Shown: in pieces, positions 29,639 to 37,251 of the stretch
Position numbering within the stretch: position 1 is the first letter of the stretch
How the letters are laid out: the number at the start of each line of letters is the position of its first letter
Assembly: GCA_001830835.1 (NCBI GenBank)
Contig: MICJ01000069.1
Span: 1 to 41,733 of the forward strand
Length of the DNA: 41,733 bases
Reading direction: 5' to 3'
DNA from: Syntrophobacterales bacterium GWC2_56_13
Lineage (GTDB): Bacteria; Desulfobacterota; Syntrophia; Syntrophales; UBA5619
Notes under the pieces: generated by a model
Databases searched by the model: none
Seen by the model: only the letters and a program-made list of their open reading frames with translations
What the model was told of the DNA's origin: nothing
Program-made: the position numbers and the translations under genes

Positions 29639-29867
29639 CCTGAAATCCCTGATCACCCCGCACCTGAAGACTTCGTAAAAAGCCTTTAGTCTCCTGTCCG
29701 CGCTACGCATCATCCTTATCGACAGTTTCAGGGCAGGCGCCATGTCAGTCACGGTGAGCTTTTCGAACCATGCGCACCCTGCCTATGAAGCCTGTTCTGA
29801 AGACGTCCCCGATTCGGGACATTCCGGCTTCCTGCGAGAGCCGCACATCCCGTACAGATCTCAAAAA

Positions 29868-29944
29868 TGGCAGGCCAGGAGGGACTCGAACCCCCAGCAT
29901 CCGGATTTGGAGTCCGGCGCTCTAGCCATTAGAGCTACTGGCCT
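29868..29944 (-). tRNA. tRNA-Trp (anticodon CCA)
   Basis: Cloverleaf with acceptor AGGCCAG/CTGGCCT, anticodon stem CCGGA/TCCGG around CTCCAAA, T-arm GGGGG TTCGAGT CCCTC, and encoded 3' CCA. It lies between rpmG and secE, the usual place in many proteobacteria. Confidence 0.97.
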
Positions 29945-29975
29945 GTCCGGTCGATCACAGCAGCACCTCTCGCGA

Positions 29976-30125
29976 TTACTTCGTTTCCCGGTGCAACTTA
30001 TGGGATCTGCAGAACTTGCAGTATTTTTTCATCTCCAGCCGATTCTGCATGGTTCTTTTATTCTTAGTCGTCGTGTAGTTCCTCTGCTTGCAGTCCGTAC
30101 AGGCCAAGGTTATGATATTTCTCAT
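29976..30125 (-). CDS. rpmG: 50S ribosomal protein L33
   Basis: Forty-nine residues, starting [20 protein letters not shown]. It is the zinc-binding form with Cys9, Cys12, Cys36 and Cys39, followed by SHKLHRETK. It sits between tRNA-Thr(GGT) and tRNA-Trp, so pre-tRNA processing must release its mRNA on both sides. Confidence 0.95.
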
Positions 30126-30149
30126 GACAAACCCACCTTCTTACATCAA

Positions 30150-30225
30150 TGGAGCCCACGACCAGGATTGAACTGGTGACCTCATCCTTACCAAGGATGT
30201 GCTCTACCGACTGAGCTACGTGGGC
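30150..30225 (-). tRNA. tRNA-Thr (anticodon GGT)
   Basis: Acceptor GCCCACG/CGTGGGC, anticodon arm CATCC TTGGTAA GGATG, T-arm ACCAG TTCAATC CTGGT, discriminator T and encoded CCA. Fourth tRNA of the leading cluster. Confidence 0.97.
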
Positions 30226-30347
30226 CAGTTGCCTCTCCCAAAGCGCTGTCCTCTCGCTGCAATAAGGCCTGTATCGCCGCAGATGAGAAACGATCTCGAA
30301 CCGGTTGCGTATTGCCGGAGAATCTCACAGCTCCATGCCGAACAAAT

Positions 30348-30423
30348 TGGAGCGGGAAACGGGATTCGAACCCGCGACCCTCAGCTTGGAAGGCTGACGC
30401 TCTAGCCACTGAGCTACTCCCGC
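30348..30423 (-). tRNA. tRNA-Gly (anticodon TCC)
   Basis: Acceptor GCGGGAG/TTCCCGC (one mismatch), anticodon arm TCAGC CTTCCAA GCTGA, T-arm GCGGG TTCGAAT CCCGT, encoded CCA. A 122-base spacer without recognisable content separates it from tRNA-Thr(GGT). Confidence 0.96.
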
Positions 30424-30481
30424 TTATTAAAGAGGAAGCCTTGCTGGTCTTCCTGCTTCCGGACGTCCAGCTACAGTAAAC

Positions 30482-30566
30482 TGGTGGAGGGGGGAGGGTT
30501 CGAACCTCCGTAGGCTTCGCCGGCAGATTTACAGTCTGCTCCCTTTGACCGCTCGGGAACCCCTCC
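30482..30566 (-). tRNA. tRNA-Tyr (anticodon GTA)
   Basis: Class II tRNA of 85 bases with a long variable arm (CGGCGAAGCCTAC), anticodon arm GCAGA CTGTAAA TCTGC, T-arm GGAGG TTCGAAC CTCC, discriminator A and encoded CCA. Confidence 0.97.
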
Positions 30567-30586
30567 ATATGACAGAAACTTCTTAC

Positions 30587-30662
30587 TGGAGCTGGCGATG
30601 GGACTTGAACCCGCAACCTGCTGATTACAAATCAGCTGCTCTACCGATTGAGCTACGCCAGC
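30587..30662 (-). tRNA. tRNA-Thr (anticodon TGT)
   Basis: Acceptor GCTGGCG/CGCCAGC, anticodon arm GCTGA TTTGTAA TCAGC, T-arm GCGGG TTCAAGT CCCAT, encoded CCA. First transcribed gene of the cluster, about 85 bases after the predicted start from the nearest promoter. Confidence 0.97.
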
Positions 30663-30753
30663 AACTATAACAATTGAATATTACAAATAATTATCCAGAG
30701 ATACGCACCGTCGCCACCCCGGAAGGGAAAATCACTGACTACACAAAAAATGA

Positions 30754-30782
30754 ATGCTAAATTTTATATCTTGGTTTGTCAA
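30754..30782 (-). promoter_or_regulatory. Proximal sigma70-like promoter of the tRNA-secE superoperon
   Basis: TTGACA (30777-30782), 17-base spacer, TAGCAT (30754-30759) on the minus strand, about 90 bases upstream of tRNA-Thr(TGT). Confidence 0.65.
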
Positions 30783-30854
30783 GATATTTTTTAATTTTTT
30801 CCGGACGGCCAAGGGCATTCTCGGTCATCTTCACAGAAGATCTCGGCAGAAAAG

Positions 30855-30883
30855 ATAAAACCCTCGTCCCCTTCTCCTGTCAA
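30855..30883 (-). promoter_or_regulatory. Middle sigma70-like promoter of the superoperon
   Basis: TTGACA (30878-30883), 17-base spacer, TTTTAT (30855-30860) on the minus strand. The perfect -35 and ideal spacing support it; the -10 is weaker. Confidence 0.45.
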
Positions 30884-30903
30884 GCTTGAGGTAGAATGCA
30901 AGA

Positions 30904-30933
30904 TTTATAACAGGTTTCTACCAGAAAGGTCAA
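30904..30933 (-). promoter_or_regulatory. Distal sigma70-like promoter of the superoperon
   Basis: TTGACC (30928-30933), 18-base spacer, TATAAA (30904-30909) on the minus strand. With the two others it would form a tandem promoter array, as is common for highly expressed stable-RNA and ribosomal operons. Confidence 0.45.
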
Positions 30934-30996
30934 GCGGTCCCAATGGTGTTCGGACGCCACCTGCGGCAGCAGCAGTCCCCGATGGAAACCTCTGAC

Positions 30997-31304
30997 GGTA
31001 TAAAGAGTGTAAAATCTTTTGTGTGAATTCATAAGTGGTCATATTTGACCTTTTTCAACTTTCCCCCGGAAGAATGGATTTCGGTATGGACAACCAACAT
31101 CATTGAACGGCTCAACAAAGAGTTCCGACGTCGTACCAAGGTCATGGAGACCGTGGCCGGAAAGATCGCCTGTTATCGCATCCTGGCCTACATATCTTTG
31201 AAAATGGAGCTTCATTGGAGGTCAAACCCAGTAGGAAAAGTACGTAAGAACTTGCCTTTCTTCAAATAATTGGCCTATGAATATTTTACAAAAAAAAGTT
31301 GACA
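30997..31304 (+). mobile_element. IS256-family deletion remnant with candidate terminal repeats
   Basis: A transposase C-terminus is flanked by sequences that resemble each other in inverted orientation. The left side is TGTAAAATCTTTTGTGTGAA, then TTCATAAG. The right side reads CCTATGAATATTTTACAAAA, then AAAAGTTGACA. Both share a TATGAAT...ACAAAA core. Most of the transposase has been lost. Exact ends are uncertain. The right end supplies the TTGACA of the plus-strand promoter at 31299. Confidence 0.5.
31045..31269 (+). pseudogene. IS256-type (mutator) transposase, C-terminal fragment
   Basis: The remaining frame of about 74 codons encodes WTTNIIERLNKEFRRRTKVM, then ETVAGKIACYRILAYISLKM and ELHWRSNPVGKVRKNLPF. 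The TTN-IERLNKEFRRRT block is the conserved C-terminal signature of IS256-family DDE transposases, which are normally about 400 residues. The catalytic part is missing, so it is inactive. The fragment is on the opposite strand to the ribosomal operon and begins about 100 bases beyond the distal superoperon promoter. Confidence 0.85.
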
Positions 31305-31327
31305 GCACCGGAGTATTTTACTATTAT
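31299..31327 (+). promoter_or_regulatory. Near-consensus sigma70 promoter at the IS end
   Basis: TTGACA (31299-31304), 17-base spacer, TATTAT (31322-31327). Strong by sequence. It overlaps the proposed right end of the IS remnant and points into the decayed region at 31378-31577. Confidence 0.6.
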
Positions 31328-31377
31328 TAACCCATAAATTAACGCTCATTGATTTTCTTGAATGAGAACATTACCGT

Positions 31378-31577
31378 ATGAGCAACGAAAACGATATAAT
31401 GTTTTTGCTCCACGTTATTGATGAATATATCCACAGTATGTCAAAGATTTTTGCTTGAGCGATGCGATTGTGAAGGAAATTGAACGGAAAAGTTTAACGA
31501 GGTCCAACGGTAAATTTCAGCGCGAAATTAATCTCGTGGCCGAAAATATCTACGACGTTGGATATCCAGTTATGTGA
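31378..31577 (+). pseudogene. Unrecognised decayed reading frame
   Basis: An ATG at 31378 opens 26 codons (MSNENDIMFLLHVIDEYIHS, then MSKIFA) ending TGA. In another frame the following bases read YVKDFCLSDAIVKEIERKSL, then TRSNGKFQREINLVAENIYD and VGYPVM, ending at 31577. The two halves look like one gene broken by a frameshift near 31437. I do not recognise the protein, and coding status is uncertain. The stretch 31578-31633 holds only a small inverted motif (CACGCATCTGCGATC...ATCGCTGCGTG). Confidence 0.3.
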
Positions 31578-31633
31578 GGCGTGGGATTCCTTCACGCATC
31601 TGCGATCTTGAACTCAAAATCGCTGCGTGAATT

Positions 31634-31662
31634 TTTACAAACACGTCATTTTTCGTTATAGT
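31634..31662 (+). promoter_or_regulatory. Sigma70-like promoter for the small secreted protein
   Basis: TTTACA (31634-31639), 17-base spacer, TATAGT (31657-31662). It is followed by an approximately 85-base leader that contains an AGGAGG at 31672-31677 in addition to the gene's own site. Confidence 0.6.
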
Positions 31663-31753
31663 ACGAAAGAAAGGAGGTGTGGGAATTTTAATAAGCAAGC
31701 GAACTTGGGGGAGTCAATTAAATCAGGACATAAAAACTTAAACGGAGGAGAAA

Positions 31754-32155
31754 ATGAAAAAAATATTGGTACCGATGATTATCGGTTTAGTGTTTATGCT
31801 GGTACCGGTTTTCGCGATCGGCGCAACTCTTACCGGTTCGATTCAGGGGTTCAACTGCGTGACGCAGGGGAAAATTTGTCCCATTGGGATGGAAGATCCC
31901 GTGATTGCCGTGGAGAATGTGTTTGTGCTCCTTGTTGACGCCGCGAAGTCGGAGTATTATTTTGTTCCCAATGTGGACAGAGGAATCCTTGCCCGGCACA
32001 TCAACCAAACGGTTGCAATCACAGGGACGGTGAACTCGAAAATGAAATCCATCAAGGCATCAGAAATCTCTGTAGCGGGGAAAAAGGTATGGAGTGTTGA
32101 CTTGGAGGATGCTATTTACAAGGACATTATAGGAGTTCCGCCTGCAGCAAAATAA
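31754..32155 (+). CDS. Small secreted protein of unknown function with two cysteines
   Basis: 133 residues with a clear signal peptide (MKKILVPMIIGLVFMLVPVF, cleavage likely after AIGA at residue 24). The mature part has Cys35 and Cys42 in GFNCVTQGKICPIGMEDPV, then short beta-strand-like segments (ENVFVLLVD, YYFVPNVD, INQTVAITGTVN) that suggest an OB-fold-like barrel. I do not recognise the family. GGAGGAG lies 4 bases before the ATG. It has its own promoter and terminator and converges on the CcdA-TlpA gene of the redox cluster, so a periplasmic redox or metal link is possible but unproven. Confidence 0.8.
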   Translation: MKKILVPMIIGLVFMLVPVFAIGATLTGSIQGFNCVTQGKICPIGMEDPVIAVENVFVLLVDAAKSEYYFVPNVDRGILARHINQTVAITGTVNSKMKSIKASEISVAGKKVWSVDLEDAIYKDIIGVPPAAK

Positions 32156-32174
32156 TTCTCACCCGGACGTATAC

Positions 32175-32203
32175 AACCCCCGGCGCACGCCGGGGGTTTT
32201 TTT
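32175..32203 (+). terminator. Rho-independent terminator of the small secreted protein gene
   Basis: A stem CCCCCGGC (32177-32184) with GCCGGGGG (32189-32196), loop of four, and TTTTTTT. It lies 20 bases after the stop codon. Confidence 0.92.
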
Positions 32204-32284
32204 ATGAATCCCTGCCCCTGCACAAGGCTCCACTGCAGTGGTGAACGCGATGGATTCCGTTGCCGTACTTGTAAAGAAACCGAA

Positions 32285-32311
32285 AAATGGCCGGCCTTGA
32301 GAAGAAGCCGG
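32285..32311 (-). terminator. Probable terminator of the thiol-redox operon
   Basis: On the minus strand, CCGGC (32307-32311) pairs with GCCGG (32291-32295), with an inner CTT/AAG extension, followed by CCATTTTTCG. It begins just after the stop of the CcdA-TlpA gene. The stem is short and the T-run is offset, so the call is moderate. Confidence 0.5.
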
Positions 32312-32314
32312 ACT

Positions 32315-33583
32315 TTACAAACCTTGTTTTAAATTTTTTATGAATTCGTCTTTATTGTCCGGCAGGGCCGTTCCCCTGTAAATGATCTCACCTTTCGCGT
32401 TAATGCCGACGTGATGCGGTATTCCCGTGATGCCGTATTTTCCGGTCGTCACCGTTCCCTCCGTATCCAGAAGTATTCCGTAATCGATCTGATTGGATTC
32501 TTTAAATCGTTCGACAAGTTCTGCTGGTTGTTTGTAATTGATGCTGAGCACAGTGATATTTTCCTTTTGCGCCATTTCGGCGAATTGTTTAATCTCCGGC
32601 ACTTCTTTCACACAACCGACGCACCAGGTCGCGAAGAACACCAGCACGATTCCTTTTTCACCTTTAAAACGGCTTAACGTAACCTGATGAGAGCCGTCCA
32701 GCGAAGCAAGGGTGAAGTCTGGGGCCAGATTTTCTGAACGTTTTTCAATCGCCTGGGGTGGCGATTCCGCCGAAGTGTCCGGCTTTGGTGCTTGCGCTGC
32801 GGGTGAGGACGCACTTGCCAGAAGTCGAGTCAGACTCGGAAAATCAGTATGTTGACCCACGAACACAAATAACAGACTCGCAGTGAGGATGATCAATAAA
32901 GCGAAGCCTTTTTTTACAGCCTCCATCCATACGCCTGCTTTGGGAAGTCTGGAAAGGAAGCCGGTAAAGATGCCCGCCAACAGAATCAGGGCCCCCTGGC
33001 CAAACCCGAAGAGAAAAAGCAGAACGCCACCCTTCACAACCTGCAGGGTGTAATCTATGCCGTGCACATTTTTCAGCGTCAGGGCAATCGCTCCCAACGC
33101 GACAGCCAGGATAGGGCCGGTACAAGGACCGACAATTAAACCGCTGACGCCCCCGATCACGAACGCTCCCGATAGTCCTTTACGGTTTGCCGATTTTGCG
33201 TGGAGCCTGGAGAAAAACCTGGGAGTGGGAAAATGAAACACGTCCAGAAGGAAAAGTCCCATTATTAGGTAATACACGGCGATCGCATAAAGAACCAACC
33301 CATTCCCCATGATCGAGCCGAGCGTCCCTCCCACCGCCGCAACGATACCGCCCAGTATAGCGTAAACCGCCGCCAAGCCAGTCACCAGGGAAAGGCTTAA
33401 AAGAAAAGCTCTCAACCGGTTAGCGCCTGCCTGGTGACCGATATACCCGACCGTCAACGGAAGCACCGGATAGGTGCATGGCGTCACAGAGGCGAAAAGT
33501 CCGCCGCTAAACATCAGGAAATAAAGCCCGACGGTATCTTGTCGAAAAGCTTCTTCCAGGAGATGTTGGATTTGTTCGATCAT
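32315..33583 (-). CDS. CcdA/DsbD-like thiol transporter fused to a TlpA-type thioredoxin domain
   Basis: 422 residues. Residues 15-245 are a multi-span membrane domain with paired cysteines in TPCTYP (Cys36) and GPCTGP (Cys154), as in the DsbD core that moves electrons across the inner membrane. A Pro/Ala-rich linker (about 255-282) leads to a TlpA/ResA-like domain with active site WCVGC (Cys321, Cys324) and the cis-proline segment GIPHHVG. It lacks the N-terminal DsbD-alpha domain, so it is a CcdA-TlpA fusion. Likely role: passing cytoplasmic reductant to periplasmic thiol proteins, possibly the two encoded upstream. ATG follows GGAG by 7 bases. Confidence 0.88.
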   Translation of the reverse strand: MIEQIQHLLEEAFRQDTVGLYFLMFSGGLFASVTPCTYPVLPLTVGYIGHQAGANRLRAFLLSLSLVTGLAAVYAILGGIVAAVGGTLGSIMGNGLVLYAIAVYYLIMGLFLLDVFHFPTPRFFSRLHAKSANRKGLSGAFVIGGVSGLIVGPCTGPILAVALGAIALTLKNVHGIDYTLQVVKGGVLLFLFGFGQGALILLAGIFTGFLSRLPKAGVWMEAVKKGFALLIILTASLLFVFVGQHTDFPSLTRLLASASSPAAQAPKPDTSAESPPQAIEKRSENLAPDFTLASLDGSHQVTLSRFKGEKGIVLVFFATWCVGCVKEVPEIKQFAEMAQKENITVLSINYKQPAELVERFKESNQIDYGILLDTEGTVTTGKYGITGIPHHVGINAKGEIIYRGTALPDNKDEFIKNLKQGL

Positions 33584-33764
33584 TTCAAAACTCCAGTAAA
33601 CCCTTTATTGCAAATGACGCCGTTGGACACCCTGCCAGTTATGACCGCCATCACCAGTACCGTGTTCTCTGTCACTCATTAAGAGGTCAGAACCCATCGG
33701 AACAGATGAGTCGGATTTTGGTCATCTGCAATAATACGACAGTTAGGTGAACCTTTATAAGCAC

Positions 33765-34391
33765 TTATTGCCTATTTACTTTTTCAAGGGCCTTTGCGAG
33801 ATCATCAAGGAGCGGCCGTTGATTTATATCATGGACGTCAATATAGGTAATGATGCCCTTCTTGTTGATTACAAACAGGGCTCTCTCAGCTACTCCTTCT
33901 GAACGGAGCACCCCATATTTGGAGGCTACCGCACCATGAGGATAAAAGTCGGAGAGAACAGGAAACCACAATTTTTCATTGGGATTACACATCTGTTTCG
34001 TCCAGGCGTAGAGCGTGGGAATGTTGTCCACCGTAATGCCAAGCAGGATCGCGTCATGTTTATCAAAGAGGTCTTTGGAGATATTGTAGCCCGGCCATTG
34101 GCCAGAGCAAACCGGCGTCCAGGCTGCGGGAACAAAGGAGATGACGACATTCTTCTTGCCCTTGTATTGGCTGAGGGATACCTTGCCGCCCGCAACAGCA
34201 GGAAGGTTAAAATCCGGTGCAACGCCGCCAACTTTTAACTTGGGCAGACTGTCCGTGGGTTTGAGTTTTTCTACCGGATAAATAGATTCCGAAAATCCTC
34301 CTGATTGCCCATAGGCCACGGCAACTCCTGCCACTACCAGAAAAACACTGAGGCACAATAAGTCCATCCACTTCTTTTTCTGTACTCTCAT
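33765..34391 (-). CDS. Exported peroxiredoxin (AhpC/TSA family)
   Basis: 208 residues with an N-terminal signal or anchor segment (WMDLLCLSVFLVVAGVAVAY). Then comes a peroxiredoxin fold: GGVAPDFNLPAV, the peroxidatic cysteine Cys95 in PAAWTPVCSGQWPGY, and ALFVINKKGIITYIDVHDI. The TPVC motif is conserved; a possible second cysteine is Cys135. It would reduce peroxides outside the cytoplasm. It is 10 bases downstream of the CPHC protein, so they are co-transcribed. The 181-base gap to the CcdA-TlpA gene contains nothing I recognise. Confidence 0.87.
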   Translation of the reverse strand: MRVQKKKWMDLLCLSVFLVVAGVAVAYGQSGGFSESIYPVEKLKPTDSLPKLKVGGVAPDFNLPAVAGGKVSLSQYKGKKNVVISFVPAAWTPVCSGQWPGYNISKDLFDKHDAILLGITVDNIPTLYAWTKQMCNPNEKLWFPVLSDFYPHGAVASKYGVLRSEGVAERALFVINKKGIITYIDVHDINQRPLLDDLAKALEKVNRQ

Positions 34392-34401
34392 TTCTTACCT
34401 C

Positions 34402-35016
34402 CTATTTTAATCCTGACAACTTAATGATCTCCGTCAGAAACTGCTGAGTGTCCTGAAAGCCACCCTCTTCAAAATAGAACCGTTTCTGGGTTCCCTTGCC
34501 GTTCACCTTAATCCCGATATATGTGGGCGTACCTCTAACGCCAAGCATTTTAGAAATTTCCATGTTCTCGTCAGGAATAAGAGGAAATGGCACTTTGTAC
34601 CTCTTCCTGTAAGAGTCGACCTCATAAATACTATTGTTAACGCCGATTCCGATCATCTTTATCTTTTCTTTCATATCAGGGCGTTCTTGTATCTTCTTAT
34701 AGAGTTCGTTTACCTGAGATGCTGTTCGCTGGCAATGGGGGCAATAAAAGCTAAAGACCTCGATGATCAGAACCTGGGCTTTTATTTGTCCTATTTTGAA
34801 ATTTCCGGTCCCGGAAAGTCCCAGGTAACTCTTTTCCCGCTCACTTCCAGGCATGGGAAGCTCGAATACCGGGATGTTCGTATTGTTGCCTGGATCCGAT
34901 TTCACCTGATTACCAAGGACCGTGATAGCTTCAGACCCCAGAGAAGCACTTTCGGACAAAAGCGAGGCAAACAAGATAAACAGAATAAAAACCATCCGTT
35001 TTTTGTTTTTCTCCAT
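34402..35016 (-). CDS. Exported thioredoxin-like protein with CPHC active site
   Basis: 204 residues from the ATG at 35016 with GGAG 8 bases upstream. A signal peptide (KKRMVFILFILFASLLSESA) is followed by a thioredoxin-like domain. It has IEVFSFYCPHCQRTASQVNE (Cys92, Cys95) and the cis-proline RGTPTYIG. CPHC is the DsbA-type dithiol, but the small domain and TlpA-like layout leave oxidase versus reductase open. First gene of the redox operon, behind a strong promoter. Confidence 0.85.
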   Translation of the reverse strand: MEKNKKRMVFILFILFASLLSESASLGSEAITVLGNQVKSDPGNNTNIPVFELPMPGSEREKSYLGLSGTGNFKIGQIKAQVLIIEVFSFYCPHCQRTASQVNELYKKIQERPDMKEKIKMIGIGVNNSIYEVDSYRKRYKVPFPLIPDENMEISKMLGVRGTPTYIGIKVNGKGTQKRFYFEEGGFQDTQQFLTEIIKLSGLK

Positions 35017-35068
35017 GATGGATTCTCCTTTTAATTTTGACAATAAACAACACCCTTCCTTTAATTAC

Positions 35069-35097
35069 ATAGTAAGTAGCGGATCATCATATGTCAA
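35069..35097 (-). promoter_or_regulatory. Near-consensus sigma70 promoter of the redox operon
   Basis: TTGACA (35092-35097), 17-base spacer, TACTAT (35069-35074) on the minus strand, about 50 bases before the CPHC gene start. Confidence 0.75.
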
Positions 35098-35154
35098 GAT
35101 TATCTGAATGAAAATTGATCATGATAATGGAGGGGAAGCAAACAACGAATCCCA

Positions 35155-35571
35155 CTAACCGTCAAACTTCGGCAGGGGAATCTTTATGAACTGGACGCCC
35201 TCTTCCAGCAGCATTTCTTCTTCGCTCCGGGTTGTGGTTCCCCTGATATCTCTTCTCTCTTCTTCCCCATGATGAATCCGAAGGGCGACTTCTGTGAACT
35301 TCTCGCCCACGTCATCAAAGTGCTTGTGAATATATTCCTGAAATTCCCGGAGGATCTTGAGAGGAGAAACCTCTGTCTTCGGTTTCTCCGAAACCGAACG
35401 GGCCTCTCGCCCCATGATCGCCACGGAAGAAGGAACCAGTGTCACATCGGCAATCCCGCATACCGGACACGCAATGAGTCTCTCCGCCTTCTGTTCTTCG
35501 AAGGCCCCCCTATCCTTGAACCACCCCTCGAATTTATGGCCGTCCTGGCATCTCAGATCATAGATGATCAC
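35155..35571 (-). CDS. DUF1178 family protein
   Basis: 138 residues from the GTG at 35571 (VIIYDLRCQDGHKFEGWFKD, Val read as Met). I recognise the family by this start, by CxxC in ERLIACPVCGIADVTLVPSS, and by the C-terminal HHGEEERRDIRGTTTRSEEE. The function is unknown; the cysteines suggest zinc binding. An upstream extension of 99 open codons crosses the tRNA-Pro promoter and is not family-like, so I reject it. GGGAG lies 7 bases before the GTG. Confidence 0.85.
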   Translation of the reverse strand: MIIYDLRCQDGHKFEGWFKDRGAFEEQKAERLIACPVCGIADVTLVPSSVAIMGREARSVSEKPKTEVSPLKILREFQEYIHKHFDDVGEKFTEVALRIHHGEEERRDIRGTTTRSEEEMLLEEGVQFIKIPLPKFDG

Positions 35572-35802
35572 GGTCTTTCTCCCGGAAATCAGTTTCAGGG
35601 GGATTTTACCATGCCGACACACAAAATACAACCCGACTTTCAGTTCTTTTATAGGTCGGGATTGACAACGATGACCAGGCATGTATGGGGCTGTCGCTAT
35701 CAAACGCCCGGCAATGCCGCTCGATACCGGACGACCACCCTCCGCTGGAATTCCACCAAAAAATAGGATAGTCAAGATTTCTTCGGCATCTGAAAAAAAT
35801 GA

Positions 35803-35831
35803 TGGACATTTCATCCCGAATTGGTTATAAA
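35803..35831 (+). promoter_or_regulatory. Promoter of tRNA-Pro
   Basis: TGGACA (35803-35808), 17-base spacer, TATAAA (35826-35831), with the mature tRNA 5' end only 10 bases further. Confidence 0.65.
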
Positions 35832-35840
35832 GAGCGCCGT

Positions 35841-35917
35841 CGGGATGTGGCCCAGCTTGGTAGGGCACTGCGTTCGGGACGCAGGAGTCGCGCGTTCAAA
35901 TCGCGCCATCCCGACCA
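35841..35917 (+). tRNA. tRNA-Pro (anticodon CGG)
   Basis: Acceptor CGGGATG/CATCCCG, anticodon arm CTGCG TTCGGGA CGCAG, T-arm GCGCG TTCAAAT CGCGC, encoded CCA, then TTTTTTT as a likely terminator tract. The only plus-strand RNA gene here. The 125 bases after it contain a copy of the motif TACGTAAAAAGTCC (35970-35983), related to one upstream of secE. Confidence 0.96.
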
Positions 35918-36027
35918 TTTTTTTACATGCCCCCTCAGCCCCTCGGCAGGAATCTTGCGTGTTTCATTCTTGACGGCTACGTAAAAAGTCCAAGACCATT
36001 GCCCCTATTAACCTGAGTAGTTACCCT

Positions 36028-36051
36028 GCCGGATATCCCGAACTATCCGGC
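36028..36051 (-). other. Hairpin overlapping the pilC stop codon
   Basis: Arms GCCGGATA and TATCCGGC with an 8-base loop overlap the end of pilC. No T-run follows on the minus strand, so it may stabilise the mRNA 3' end or mark Rho-dependent termination rather than act as an intrinsic terminator. Confidence 0.5.
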
Positions 36052-37251
36052 GGCCGCGGCCATCTGGAAGATAGGCAGATACATGGCGATGATCATCCCG
36101 CCGACCACGCCTCCCAGAAAAACCATCATGAAGGGTTCCAGCAGGGCCGTCATCGCGCCAACCGCTGCATCCACTTCATCGTCGTAGAAATCGGCGATTT
36201 TGGTGAGCATCGTATCCAGGGCGCCCGTCGCCTCTCCGACGGCGATCATCTGCACCACCATGGCCGGGAAGATGTTCGCTTCCATCAGGGGTTCGGCGAT
36301 TGTCTTCCCTTCGCCGATGCTCTGTCTCGTTTTCACGAGGGCGTTTTCGATGATCTTGTTCCCTGCGGTCCTGCTGACGATTCCGAGTCCTTCCATGATC
36401 GGCACCCCGCTCGACATCATCGTGGAAAGGGTCCTCGTGAACTTGGCCACGGCCACCTTCTTCAACAGAGGGCCAAAAACCGGCGATTTCAGGATGAGGG
36501 CGTCGACGACGAGCTTCCCCTGCTCGGTCTTGTAATACCTTTTAAACCCAAAGAAGAGTGCGACCAGCCCGGCGCCCACATAGAGAAAGTAATGCTGGGC
36601 GAACTGACTGGCATCCACCAGAAACTGGGTTGGCCCGGGCAGGGCGGAGCCCATTCCTTCAAACATCGTCTGGAAGACCGGAATCACTTTCAGCAACAGG
36701 ACGGCCACAACGCCGATGGAGATGACGAGGACGCTGGCCGGATAGGTCATGGCTCCCTTGACCTTGCTTTTGAGTTTCATGGCCTTCTCCATGTAGCCCG
36801 ACAGGCGCTGGAGAATAACGTCCAGGATGCCGCCACTCTCCCCTGCCGCCACCAGATTCACGAAGAGATCATCGAAAACATCAGGATATTTTCTGAGGGC
36901 ATCGGTGAGCGTGGAGCCGCCCTCGATATCTTCCTTGATGGCGCCGATCATCTTGGAAAAAGTCTTGTTCTGCTCCTGTTTCCCGAGCAGATCGAGGCAC
37001 TGGATCAGGGGGAGGCCCGCATTAATCATGGTGGCAAAGATCCGGGCAAAAATCACCACATCCTTCTCCTTGACCTTCTGCTTCAGAAAGGGCAGATACT
37101 CCAGGAGATCCTTCGGTTTCTTCTTGACGCTGATGGATTTATATCCCTGCCGGCGGAGTTGGGCCCGGATGGCTGCTTCATCGGCGCCATCGAGCTCGCC
37201 TTTTCTGGTTTCGCCTTTTCTCGTTTCCGCACTCCAGATGAATATCGGCAT
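36043..37251 (-). CDS. pilC: Type IV pilus / type II secretion inner-membrane platform protein
   Basis: GspF/PilC family, 402 residues from the ATG at 37251 with AAGGA upstream. Two T2SF domains are visible: FARIFATMINAGLPLIQCLD...FDDLFVNLVAAGESGGILD (about residues 70-195) and KFTRTLSTMMSSGVPIMEGL...QMIAVGEATGALDTMLTKIA (about 270-395). Membrane segments are at about 170-190, 215-240 and 375-395. The N-terminus repeats TRKGE twice in a row (an 11-base identity at 15-base spacing). It starts 2 bases after rlmB; no other pilus gene is in the window. Confidence 0.92.
   Translation of the reverse strand: MPIFIWSAETRKGETRKGELDGADEAAIRAQLRRQGYKSISVKKKPKDLLEYLPFLKQKVKEKDVVIFARIFATMINAGLPLIQCLDLLGKQEQNKTFSKMIGAIKEDIEGGSTLTDALRKYPDVFDDLFVNLVAAGESGGILDVILQRLSGYMEKAMKLKSKVKGAMTYPASVLVISIGVVAVLLLKVIPVFQTMFEGMGSALPGPTQFLVDASQFAQHYFLYVGAGLVALFFGFKRYYKTEQGKLVVDALILKSPVFGPLLKKVAVAKFTRTLSTMMSSGVPIMEGLGIVSRTAGNKIIENALVKTRQSIGEGKTIAEPLMEANIFPAMVVQMIAVGEATGALDTMLTKIADFYDDEVDAAVGAMTALLEPFMMVFLGGVVGGMIIAMYLPIFQMAAAAG

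What the first reader, a model, noticed from the sequence alone, without database searches (positions are those of the whole stretch)
32315..35097. Compact periplasmic thiol-peroxide module in a probable anaerobe
One promoter appears to serve a CPHC thioredoxin-like protein, an exported peroxiredoxin and a CcdA-TlpA fusion. A CcdA-type membrane reductant channel with its own thioredoxin domain could feed electrons to the peroxiredoxin, giving a self-contained extracytoplasmic peroxide-reduction pathway. The placement beside an IS remnant and between two tRNA loci suggests acquisition. The arrangement as a pathway is inference.
Basis: partly seen in the sequence, partly recalled or inferred. 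Interest (0 to 1): 0.5.

Follow-up and report, generated by a model that had tools for sequence, protein, structure and literature searches.

The report
Exported peroxide-reducing relay, three-gene operon
Three neighbouring genes in an environmental bacterium very probably form an electron relay that removes peroxide outside the cell membrane; two of them travel together in many related bacteria, while the third, which supplies the electrons, was added beside them in one small and apparently mobile branch.

Summary
The minus strand carries, in order, an exported ResA-fold redoxin (active site CPHC), an exported peroxiredoxin and a CcdA-TlpA fusion.

What the tools add:
(1) The redoxin-peroxiredoxin pair is the core. 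It is adjacent in 35 of 36 genomes with this peroxiredoxin, of 61 relatives searched, and at 86 or more of 100 hits in a 395-genome phylum sample.
(2) The peroxiredoxin is 1-Cys and nearest to AhpE, so it needs a partner thiol.
(3) In 14 of 80 loci the redoxin has an in-frame TGA exactly at its first active-site Cys, with a SECIS-like stem, which suggests selenocysteine.
(4) Among 80 loci the CcdA-TlpA gene stands beside the pair in one clade only (window plus six), usually with a small OB-fold-like exported gene. Identities, contexts and patchy distribution point to horizontal transfer.

Best reading: cytoplasmic thiols > CcdA > TlpA domain > CPHC redoxin > 1-Cys peroxiredoxin > peroxide. Every electron-transfer step is inferred. 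ScsB-PprX and CcdA-Etrx-MsrAB are precedents, so this is a new variant of a known kind. "Anaerobe" needs qualifying: the genome encodes a cytochrome bd subunit.

The parts
34402..35016 (-). CPHC redoxin: exported ResA/TlpA-fold protein; active site CPHC at 34732-34743
   Evidence: Pfam AhpC-TSA 4.9e-10 and Redoxin 7.8e-9; AlphaFold pLDDT 87.2; best fold match 3c71, ResA CPHC variant, E 3.4e-9; N-terminal helix 3-22 reads as signal/anchor (my reading; no signal predictor was run)
33765..34391 (-). exported 1-Cys (AhpE-type) peroxiredoxin; PAAWTPVC, peroxidatic Cys95 codon 34107-34109
   Evidence: Pfam 8.8e-32; C95 the only Cys invariant in 28 aligned homologs; best solved relative Rv2238c, E 1.1e-29
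32315..33583 (-). CcdA-TlpA fusion; DsbD_TM part 32870-33520, redoxin domain about 32378-32728 with CVGC at 32612-32623
   Evidence: Pfam DsbD_TM 9.3e-34 and AhpC-TSA 4.4e-19; only DsbD_TM hit in the held genome
35069..35097 (-). promoter-like element TTGACA-N17-TACTAT
   Evidence: 10 of 12 consensus matches; similar element upstream in L053, L054 and L056, not in L055, L057 or L058
31754..32155 (+). small exported protein, convergent neighbour; CVTQGKxCP motif, OB-fold-like
   Evidence: beside the redoxin plus CcdA-TlpA unit in 6 of 6 of the 61 relatives that have such a unit, but not found at L055 or L058; no Pfam hit; model pLDDT 72.1, no significant fold hit, best E 0.2, mostly OB folds by my reading
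32175..32198 (+). terminator-like hairpin between the convergent units
   Evidence: 10-pair stem, 8 GC, T tail
31045..31269 (+). IS256-type transposase C-terminal remnant
   Evidence: Pfam 4.3e-11, profile 319-377 of 379; NCBIfam IS256 1.5e-11

Best explanation
An extracytoplasmic peroxide-reducing relay. Electrons from cytoplasmic thioredoxin cross the membrane through the CcdA part of the fusion to its own CVGC redoxin domain. From there they pass to the exported CPHC redoxin, which resolves the sulfenic acid that forms on the single catalytic Cys of the exported AhpE-type peroxiredoxin after it reduces a peroxide. The redoxin-Prx pair is the general module, recharged in most genomes by an unlinked CcdA/DsbD-type protein. 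In the window's clade a dedicated CcdA-TlpA gene has been added beside it, making the unit self-contained, and the unit has moved between lineages. Shown here: gene identity, conserved linkage, the 1-Cys character, the recurrent TGA at the redoxin's first Cys in relatives, and inheritance that does not follow RpoB. Inferred: localisation (from N-termini), every electron-transfer step, and the peroxide substrate.
For: Linkage: Prx (E<=1e-60) and redoxin (E<=1e-10) occur in the same 36 of 61 genomes, adjacent in 35 (in G021 they are 3.3 kb apart) (counted by hand); redoxin upstream within 330 nt in 79 of the 80 best genome-contig loci, the 80th (L132) cut at the contig start; at least 86 of 100 Prx hits in 395 phylum genomes. 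1-Cys: C95 is the only Cys invariant in 28 homologs; nearest solved relative is Rv2238c (that this is AhpE is recalled), and AhpE can be reduced directly by mycoredoxin-1 (PMC4360819, passages). Redoxin: ResA fold, best match a CPHC variant of ResA. Sec: in 14 of 80 loci a single TGA replaces exactly the first Cys (MY-U-PxC), with a SECIS-like stem in 14 of 14 against 7 of 63 Cys forms and tRNA-Sec in 10 of 13 such genomes searched; Sec at the attacking position suits a reductant. Feeder: CcdA-TlpA follows the pair in the window and in 6 of 80 loci, one clade on the Prx tree, 99/95; in G042:C81 the CPHC redoxin and a CcdA-TlpA stay adjacent without the Prx, which places the redoxin between the two.
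Against: No transcript, enzyme or localisation data. The Prx-CcdA gap is 181 nt, so a separate promoter is possible. The feeder is missing behind the pair in the other 74 of 80 loci (63 of which hold 1.4 kb or more downstream). Two of 31 pair-only genomes (G041, G050; 96 and 99% complete) have no DsbD_TM protein at 1e-5, so some pairs draw electrons elsewhere. 14 of 100 phylum-level Prx hits had no adjacent redoxin among the rows I used. Three of 13 genomes with a TGA form gave no tRNA-Sec over the cut-off. The fusion is the only DsbD_TM protein found in the held 90.8%-complete genome, so it may serve other clients too. CPHC is also the classic DsbA (oxidase) motif (recalled).
Confidence: 0.62

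Rival explanations
1. The CcdA-TlpA fusion is the cell's general periplasmic reductant, chiefly for cytochrome c maturation or similar thiol housekeeping, and sits behind the pair by chance or for co-regulation.
For: Only DsbD_TM protein found in the held genome; the redoxin's fold relatives include ResA and CcmG, which serve cytochrome c maturation (recalled); two NorC-like c-type cytochrome subunits in the genome (my reading).
Against: Retained directly behind the pair in the window and all six other loci of the clade, whereas in all 24 pair-only genomes with a CcdA relative at 1e-20 that gene lies elsewhere; adjacency to the CPHC redoxin persists without the Prx in G042. Of six neighbouring proteins scanned from the loci L033-L037, none is a cytochrome-assembly protein over its cut-off; the other neighbours were not scanned.
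Confidence: 0.16
2. The CPHC redoxin is an oxidase or isomerase (DsbA/DsbC-like) and the Prx drives disulfide formation, using peroxide as oxidant.
For: CPHC is the DsbA motif (recalled; the title of 3c71 calls it DsbA-like).
Against: The best fold matches are ResA, and no DsbA entry is among the 50 shown; the motif varies among CPHC, CPYC, CPFC, CPIC, CPVC and four single others; linked to a CcdA-type gene in one clade; TGA (Sec) at the first position in 14 of 80 loci.
Confidence: 0.12
3. The relay reduces something other than peroxide, such as an oxidised sulfur or nitrogen compound or a client thiol; the small CVTQGKxCP protein may be a client.
For: Small protein with a conserved Cys pair next to the unit in 6 of 6 relatives with such a unit, also where the Prx is missing (G042); genome carries two NO-reductase-like gene sets (my reading).
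Against: Complete PxxxTxxC site and invariant Arg residues in the Prx family (catalytic role recalled); Rv2238c/AhpE is the nearest solved relative; the small protein was not found at L055 and L058.
Confidence: 0.1

Closest known systems
ScsB-TlpL-PprX pathway of Caulobacter crescentus (Cho et al. 2012, recalled, not held; summarised in a passage of PMC5403849, which writes TlpA where I recall TlpL)
   Same: Membrane thiol transporter, periplasmic Trx-like protein, periplasmic peroxiredoxin; reduces peroxide in the envelope.
   Different: Transporter is ScsB there; here a short CcdA fused to its own redoxin domain. Whether this Prx is a PprX homolog was not tested, as no PprX sequence was at hand.
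CcdA-Etrx-SpMsrAB2 of Streptococcus pneumoniae (PMC3914529, abstract and outline) and the msrAB locus with Trx- and CcdA-like proteins of Fusobacterium nucleatum (PMC9239216, abstract and outline)
   Same: CcdA plus a Trx-like protein beside an oxidative-stress enzyme; the second is in an obligate anaerobe.
   Different: Terminal enzyme is methionine sulfoxide reductase, not a peroxiredoxin.
AhpE-mycoredoxin-1 of Mycobacterium tuberculosis (PMC4360819, passages)
   Same: One-Cys AhpE-type peroxidase reduced by a redoxin (CxxC site of mycoredoxin recalled).
   Different: No export relay or CcdA; mycoredoxin is glutaredoxin-like and mycothiol-linked, whereas the redoxin here is ResA-fold.
Prx-like thiol:disulfide oxidoreductase selenoproteins (PF00578, UxxC) in the table of PMC13188914 (passages; also PMC9312934, passages)
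   Same: PF00578 domain with a UxxC site fits the TGA forms of the redoxin.
   Different: The listed family is generic; linkage to a 1-Cys Prx was not in the passages I read.
DipZ of M. tuberculosis (PDB 2hyx, 5cyy; domain layout recalled)
   Same: CcdA-type membrane part fused to a Trx-like domain.
   Different: DipZ has an extra C-terminal domain (recalled) and was not compared beyond the fold hit.

Membership tests
AhpE-type 1-Cys peroxiredoxin | PxxxTxxC active site | tested here: met
   PAAWTPVC: P88, T92, C95 invariant in 28 of 28 (28 of the 30 sequences at hand, L021 and L022 left out)
AhpE-type 1-Cys peroxiredoxin | no conserved resolving Cys | tested here: met
   C95 is the only invariant Cys; the second Cys of the window copy's mature part is shared by only two of the other 27 (L004, L006)
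AhpE-type 1-Cys peroxiredoxin | sequence nearest to AhpE among solved Prxs | tested here: met
   Rv2238c/MT2298 entries rank 1-6, E 1.1e-29 to 4.3e-29; rank 7 is 4xih, named only AhpC/TSA family protein, 2.9e-28; rank 8 is 2ywn, 3.1e-22
AhpE-type 1-Cys peroxiredoxin | peroxidase activity | not testable with these tools
   needs protein
ResA/TlpA-like thiol-disulfide oxidoreductase | ResA fold, CxxC and cis-Pro | tested here: met
   fold matches ResA, E 3.4e-9; CxxC and the TP dipeptide invariant in the 25 homologs aligned, all Cys forms; cis geometry not checked; scores far below the NCBIfam ResA cut-off (41.4 against 170 bits)
CcdA/DsbD transmembrane electron carrier | DsbD_TM domain with two conserved membrane Cys | tested here: met
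   DsbD_TM 9.3e-34; C36 and C154 invariant in 5 of 5
Selenoprotein (TGA form of the redoxin) | in-frame TGA at a redox Cys, SECIS, Sec machinery | tested here: inconclusive
   relatives: TGA in 14 of 80 loci, SECIS-like stem 14 of 14, tRNA-Sec in 10 of 13 genomes searched; no protein evidence; the window protein itself has Cys
ScsB-TlpL-PprX system | ScsB-type transporter with its own N-terminal domain | tested here: not met
   422-aa protein starts directly with the DsbD_TM part at residue 22; ScsB layout recalled
ScsB-TlpL-PprX system | PprX-homologous peroxiredoxin | not tested
   no PprX sequence at hand

The most novel reading that the evidence does not exclude
The redoxin-Prx pair is an unnamed, phylum-wide envelope peroxidase in which the partner redoxin, not the peroxidase beside it, repeatedly switches between Cys and selenocysteine. 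One lineage turned it into a mobile, self-powered unit by adding a CcdA-TlpA fusion and a small OB-fold-like protein, giving a natural series for testing how selenium use and electron supply evolve in one relay.
Probability: 0.5. Interest if true: 0.58.

Novelty: new variant of a known kind. Interest (0 to 1): 0.45.

Why it matters
Anaerobic and microaerophilic bacteria meet oxygen at their envelope, and how they remove peroxide there is known from few systems (my knowledge). Here a tightly linked pair, found in about a quarter of the phylum sample (98 of 395 genomes for the Prx), with Sec-type and Cys versions and with and without its own electron feeder, offers a compact two- or three-protein system in which electron order and the benefit of selenium could be measured directly. 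It also corrects the reading that the three genes form one fixed module.

Tried and rejected
Direct use of tRNAs, the IS remnant or repeats as transfer evidence: repeats over 29700-36300 were tRNA-like copies or short two-copy pairs of the sort the tool calls chance, so I give them no weight. The promoter as general evidence: the TTGACA-N16-18-TA pattern is upstream in 4 of 7 trio loci and 5 of 68 testable pair-only loci, against 1.3% in simple shuffles; it supports the window promoter but is absent in three trio loci. COX1-family hits as oxygen use: both sit next to NorC-like subunits and one next to a NorQ-like ATPase, so I read them as NO reductases; only cytochrome bd is kept. The strict claim that the pair needs CcdA: rejected, because two pair-only genomes lack any DsbD_TM hit at 1e-5. 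The claim that such fusions exist only in this clade: rejected, because eight other relatives have full-length matches of 35-39% away from the pair, each with one or two stop codons counted inside, which I did not examine. The tree tool's single change for the Sec label counts only Sec against trio rows, so I did not use it; by eye the Sec rows lie in several places, some weakly supported. A paper search combining peroxiredoxin, TlpA, periplasm, Desulfobacterota, sulfate-reducing and selenocysteine (5 of 6 terms) gave 0 papers; in the listings I saw no title on this pair, but most subscription papers are not held, listings were capped, and I opened only seven papers, in part.
Full report
1. 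What is there. Three minus-strand genes run from 35016 to 32315: a CPHC redoxin, a peroxiredoxin (Prx) and a CcdA-TlpA fusion. The first two are 10 nt apart; the second gap is 181 nt and the scan lists no promoter-like or terminator-like site in it on that strand. A promoter-like element lies at 35097-35069. The redoxin's ATG is at 35014-35016; the segment I analysed started at 35013 and so lacks Met. In the alignment's numbering its active-site Cys are 91 and 94, 92 and 95 with Met.

2. The core is a pair. In 61 genomes (own, genus, family and order), 36 have this Prx at E<=1e-60 and the same 36 have the redoxin at E<=1e-10; the two are adjacent, redoxin first, in 35 (in G021 they are 3.3 kb apart) (counted by hand). 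A scan of the GTDB genome collection found 454 relatives of the Prx, of which the best 80 were kept. The redoxin lies upstream on the same strand within 330 nt in 79; the 80th, L132, is cut at the contig start. In a sample of 395 genomes of the phylum, 98 have the Prx (100 hits) and at least 86 hits have an adjacent redoxin, 15-308 nt between the matched parts. The count is a lower bound because I used only 100 of the printed redoxin rows. Of the 14 misses, one starts at a contig end (G403) and two are second copies (G074, G113); in some of the others the only redoxin row I used is on another contig.

3. The Prx needs a partner. C95 is the only Cys invariant in 28 homologs (28 of 30 at hand), and the second Cys of the window protein's mature part is shared by only two others. 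Among solved structures the profile is nearest to Rv2238c of M. tuberculosis (E 1.1e-29), which is AhpE (recalled). AhpE is a one-Cys peroxidase whose sulfenic acid can be reduced directly by mycoredoxin-1 (PMC4360819, passages).

4. The redoxin is the likely partner. Its model (pLDDT 87.2) matches ResA best, and the top hit is a ResA variant carrying CPHC. In 14 of 80 loci the gene is split by a single TGA exactly at the first active-site Cys: MY-U-PxC. A stem of five or more pairs with G early in the loop, by my own criteria after the bacterial SECIS rule (recalled), follows in 14 of 14, against 7 of 63 Cys forms; Fisher P 1.4e-10, not corrected for relatedness, with three non-Sec loci (L072, L131, L132) left out for a low or missing redoxin score. 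Of 13 such genomes searched, 10 have a tRNA-Sec match of 73.8-75.4 bits and 3 (of L061, L065, L119) have none over the 47-bit cut-off; L067's genome was not held. Weak matches mean nothing here: at the E-value used all 14 control genomes ring, 5 of them over the cut-off. One chromosome, CP070843.1, carries both a Cys form (L060) and a TGA form (L063). On the Prx tree 8 of the 14 TGA loci form one group (86/91) and 6 lie elsewhere (by eye). Sec at the attacking position suits a reductant. The window's own protein has Cys.

5. The feeder is a local addition. CcdA-TlpA follows the pair in the window and in six loci, L053-L058; none of the other 74 has a match over 100 bits, and 63 of these 74 hold at least 1.4 kb downstream of the Prx. 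L100 has a weak 55.5-bit match downstream on the other strand. The seven Prxs form a clade (99/95). In G042:C81 the redoxin and a 530-aa CcdA-TlpA stand together without a Prx, while the genome's redoxin-Prx pair is on C87. The redoxin is therefore linked to each of the other two on its own, which is why I put it between them. More distant fusions (35-39% over both domains, with one or two stops counted inside) lie away from the pair in eight other genomes: G005, G007, G025, G028, G031, G033, G043, G057. Of 31 pair-only genomes (G042 counted here), 24 have a CcdA relative at 1e-20, none beside the Prx; of the other 7, 5 have a DsbD_TM protein and 2 (G041, G050) have none at 1e-5.

6. Mobility. 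G030, of another family, matches the window at 86, 71 and 76% (Prx, redoxin, fusion); same-genus G001 and G002 give 77/60/69 and 79/56/71%, and same-family G018 78/73/69%, so G030 is ahead of the two same-genus genomes in all three and behind G018 only in redoxin identity. RpoB shows the reverse: G030 81%, G018 90%, G002 88%, G001 88% over a 173-residue fragment. On the Prx tree the window pairs with L053 (G030) at 99/62, below the tool's star, and same-genus L056 (G002) falls outside the other six (87/84): support is moderate. Window ORFs of 100 aa or more, other than the trio, the small gene below and ORFs overlapping them, have no match at 1e-10 in the 15-16 kb around the trio of G030, G018, G002 or G001, nor in L037, L055 or L058, and the neighbours I looked at differ. 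Same-genus G003-G006 lack the unit, though three of these four are 78-81% complete. Horizontal transfer is the simplest reading; repeated loss of paralogs is not excluded.

7. A fourth gene. A 133-aa exported protein at 31754-32155, convergent to the trio, has matches in 9 of 61 genomes, its own included. The six of these 61 with a redoxin plus CcdA-TlpA unit all carry it beside the unit (G042 upstream on the same strand); it was not found in the stretches held for L055 and L058. G002 has a second copy and G050 two copies away from any such unit. The two Cys of CVTQGKxCP are kept in 9 of 10 aligned copies. It has no Pfam match and its model looks like an OB fold, with no significant match. Its role is unknown; a redox client is a guess.

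8. Lifestyle. The held genome (2.6 Mb, 90.8% complete) encodes a cytochrome bd subunit I. Two COX1-family genes stand next to NorC-like subunits, so I read them as NO reductases. An oxygen-exposed anaerobe or microaerophile fits; "anaerobe" alone was not shown.

9. Comparison. The functional design is known: ScsB-TlpL-PprX in Caulobacter (PMC5403849, passages; original paper recalled, not held), CcdA-Etrx-MsrAB2 in pneumococcus (abstract and outline) and an msrAB locus with Trx- and CcdA-like proteins in Fusobacterium (abstract and outline). The parts belong to known families. Different here are the AhpE-type 1-Cys Prx with a ResA-fold partner, the apparent Sec/Cys alternation in the partner, and the fused, apparently mobile feeder. 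I file it as a new variant of a known kind.

Noticed in passing
window 31754-32155 (+): Small exported protein without Pfam family, OB-fold-like, conserved CVTQGKxCP Cys pair, beside the redoxin plus CcdA-TlpA unit in 6 of 6 relatives (of 61) that have one.
   Followed up: partly
L087:4890-5402, L091:4868-5398, L117:4822-5334, L122:4820-5395: A second peroxiredoxin-type gene with a SVPSLDTPVCD or AVPSLDTPVCD site (Tpx-like, my reading) sits directly upstream of the redoxin-Prx pair in four loci.
   Followed up: no
L117:11302-11862, L122:9091-9666, L132:3520-4152: A second exported Prx with TGA at the peroxidatic Cys position (TPxU) lies some kilobases downstream of the pair.
   Followed up: no
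L037:5807-8681 (G042:C81): Small protein, CPHC redoxin and a 530-aa CcdA-TlpA with a long Ala/Pro-rich linker, without a Prx.
   Followed up: partly
G005, G007, G025, G028, G031, G033, G043, G057 (places): Distant CcdA-TlpA fusions (35-39%) away from the pair, each with one or two stop codons counted inside the match; in G025, G043 and G057 the stop is TGA.
   Followed up: no
L060 and L063 (CP070843.1): One chromosome holds two redoxin-Prx pairs, one with the Cys and one with the TGA form of the redoxin.
   Followed up: no
L072:4573-5193: The redoxin reading frame has an internal stop away from the active site; sequencing error, decay or recoding not resolved.
   Followed up: no
G000 contigs C100 and C76 (L149, L150): Two NorB-like genes with adjacent NorC-like c-type cytochromes in the window's genome.
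   Followed up: partly
G000:C45:9056-9370 (L003): A distant Prx-like match (29% identity) with one TGA counted inside, in the window's genome, which also has a 74.6-bit tRNA-Sec at C60:10919-11012.
   Followed up: no
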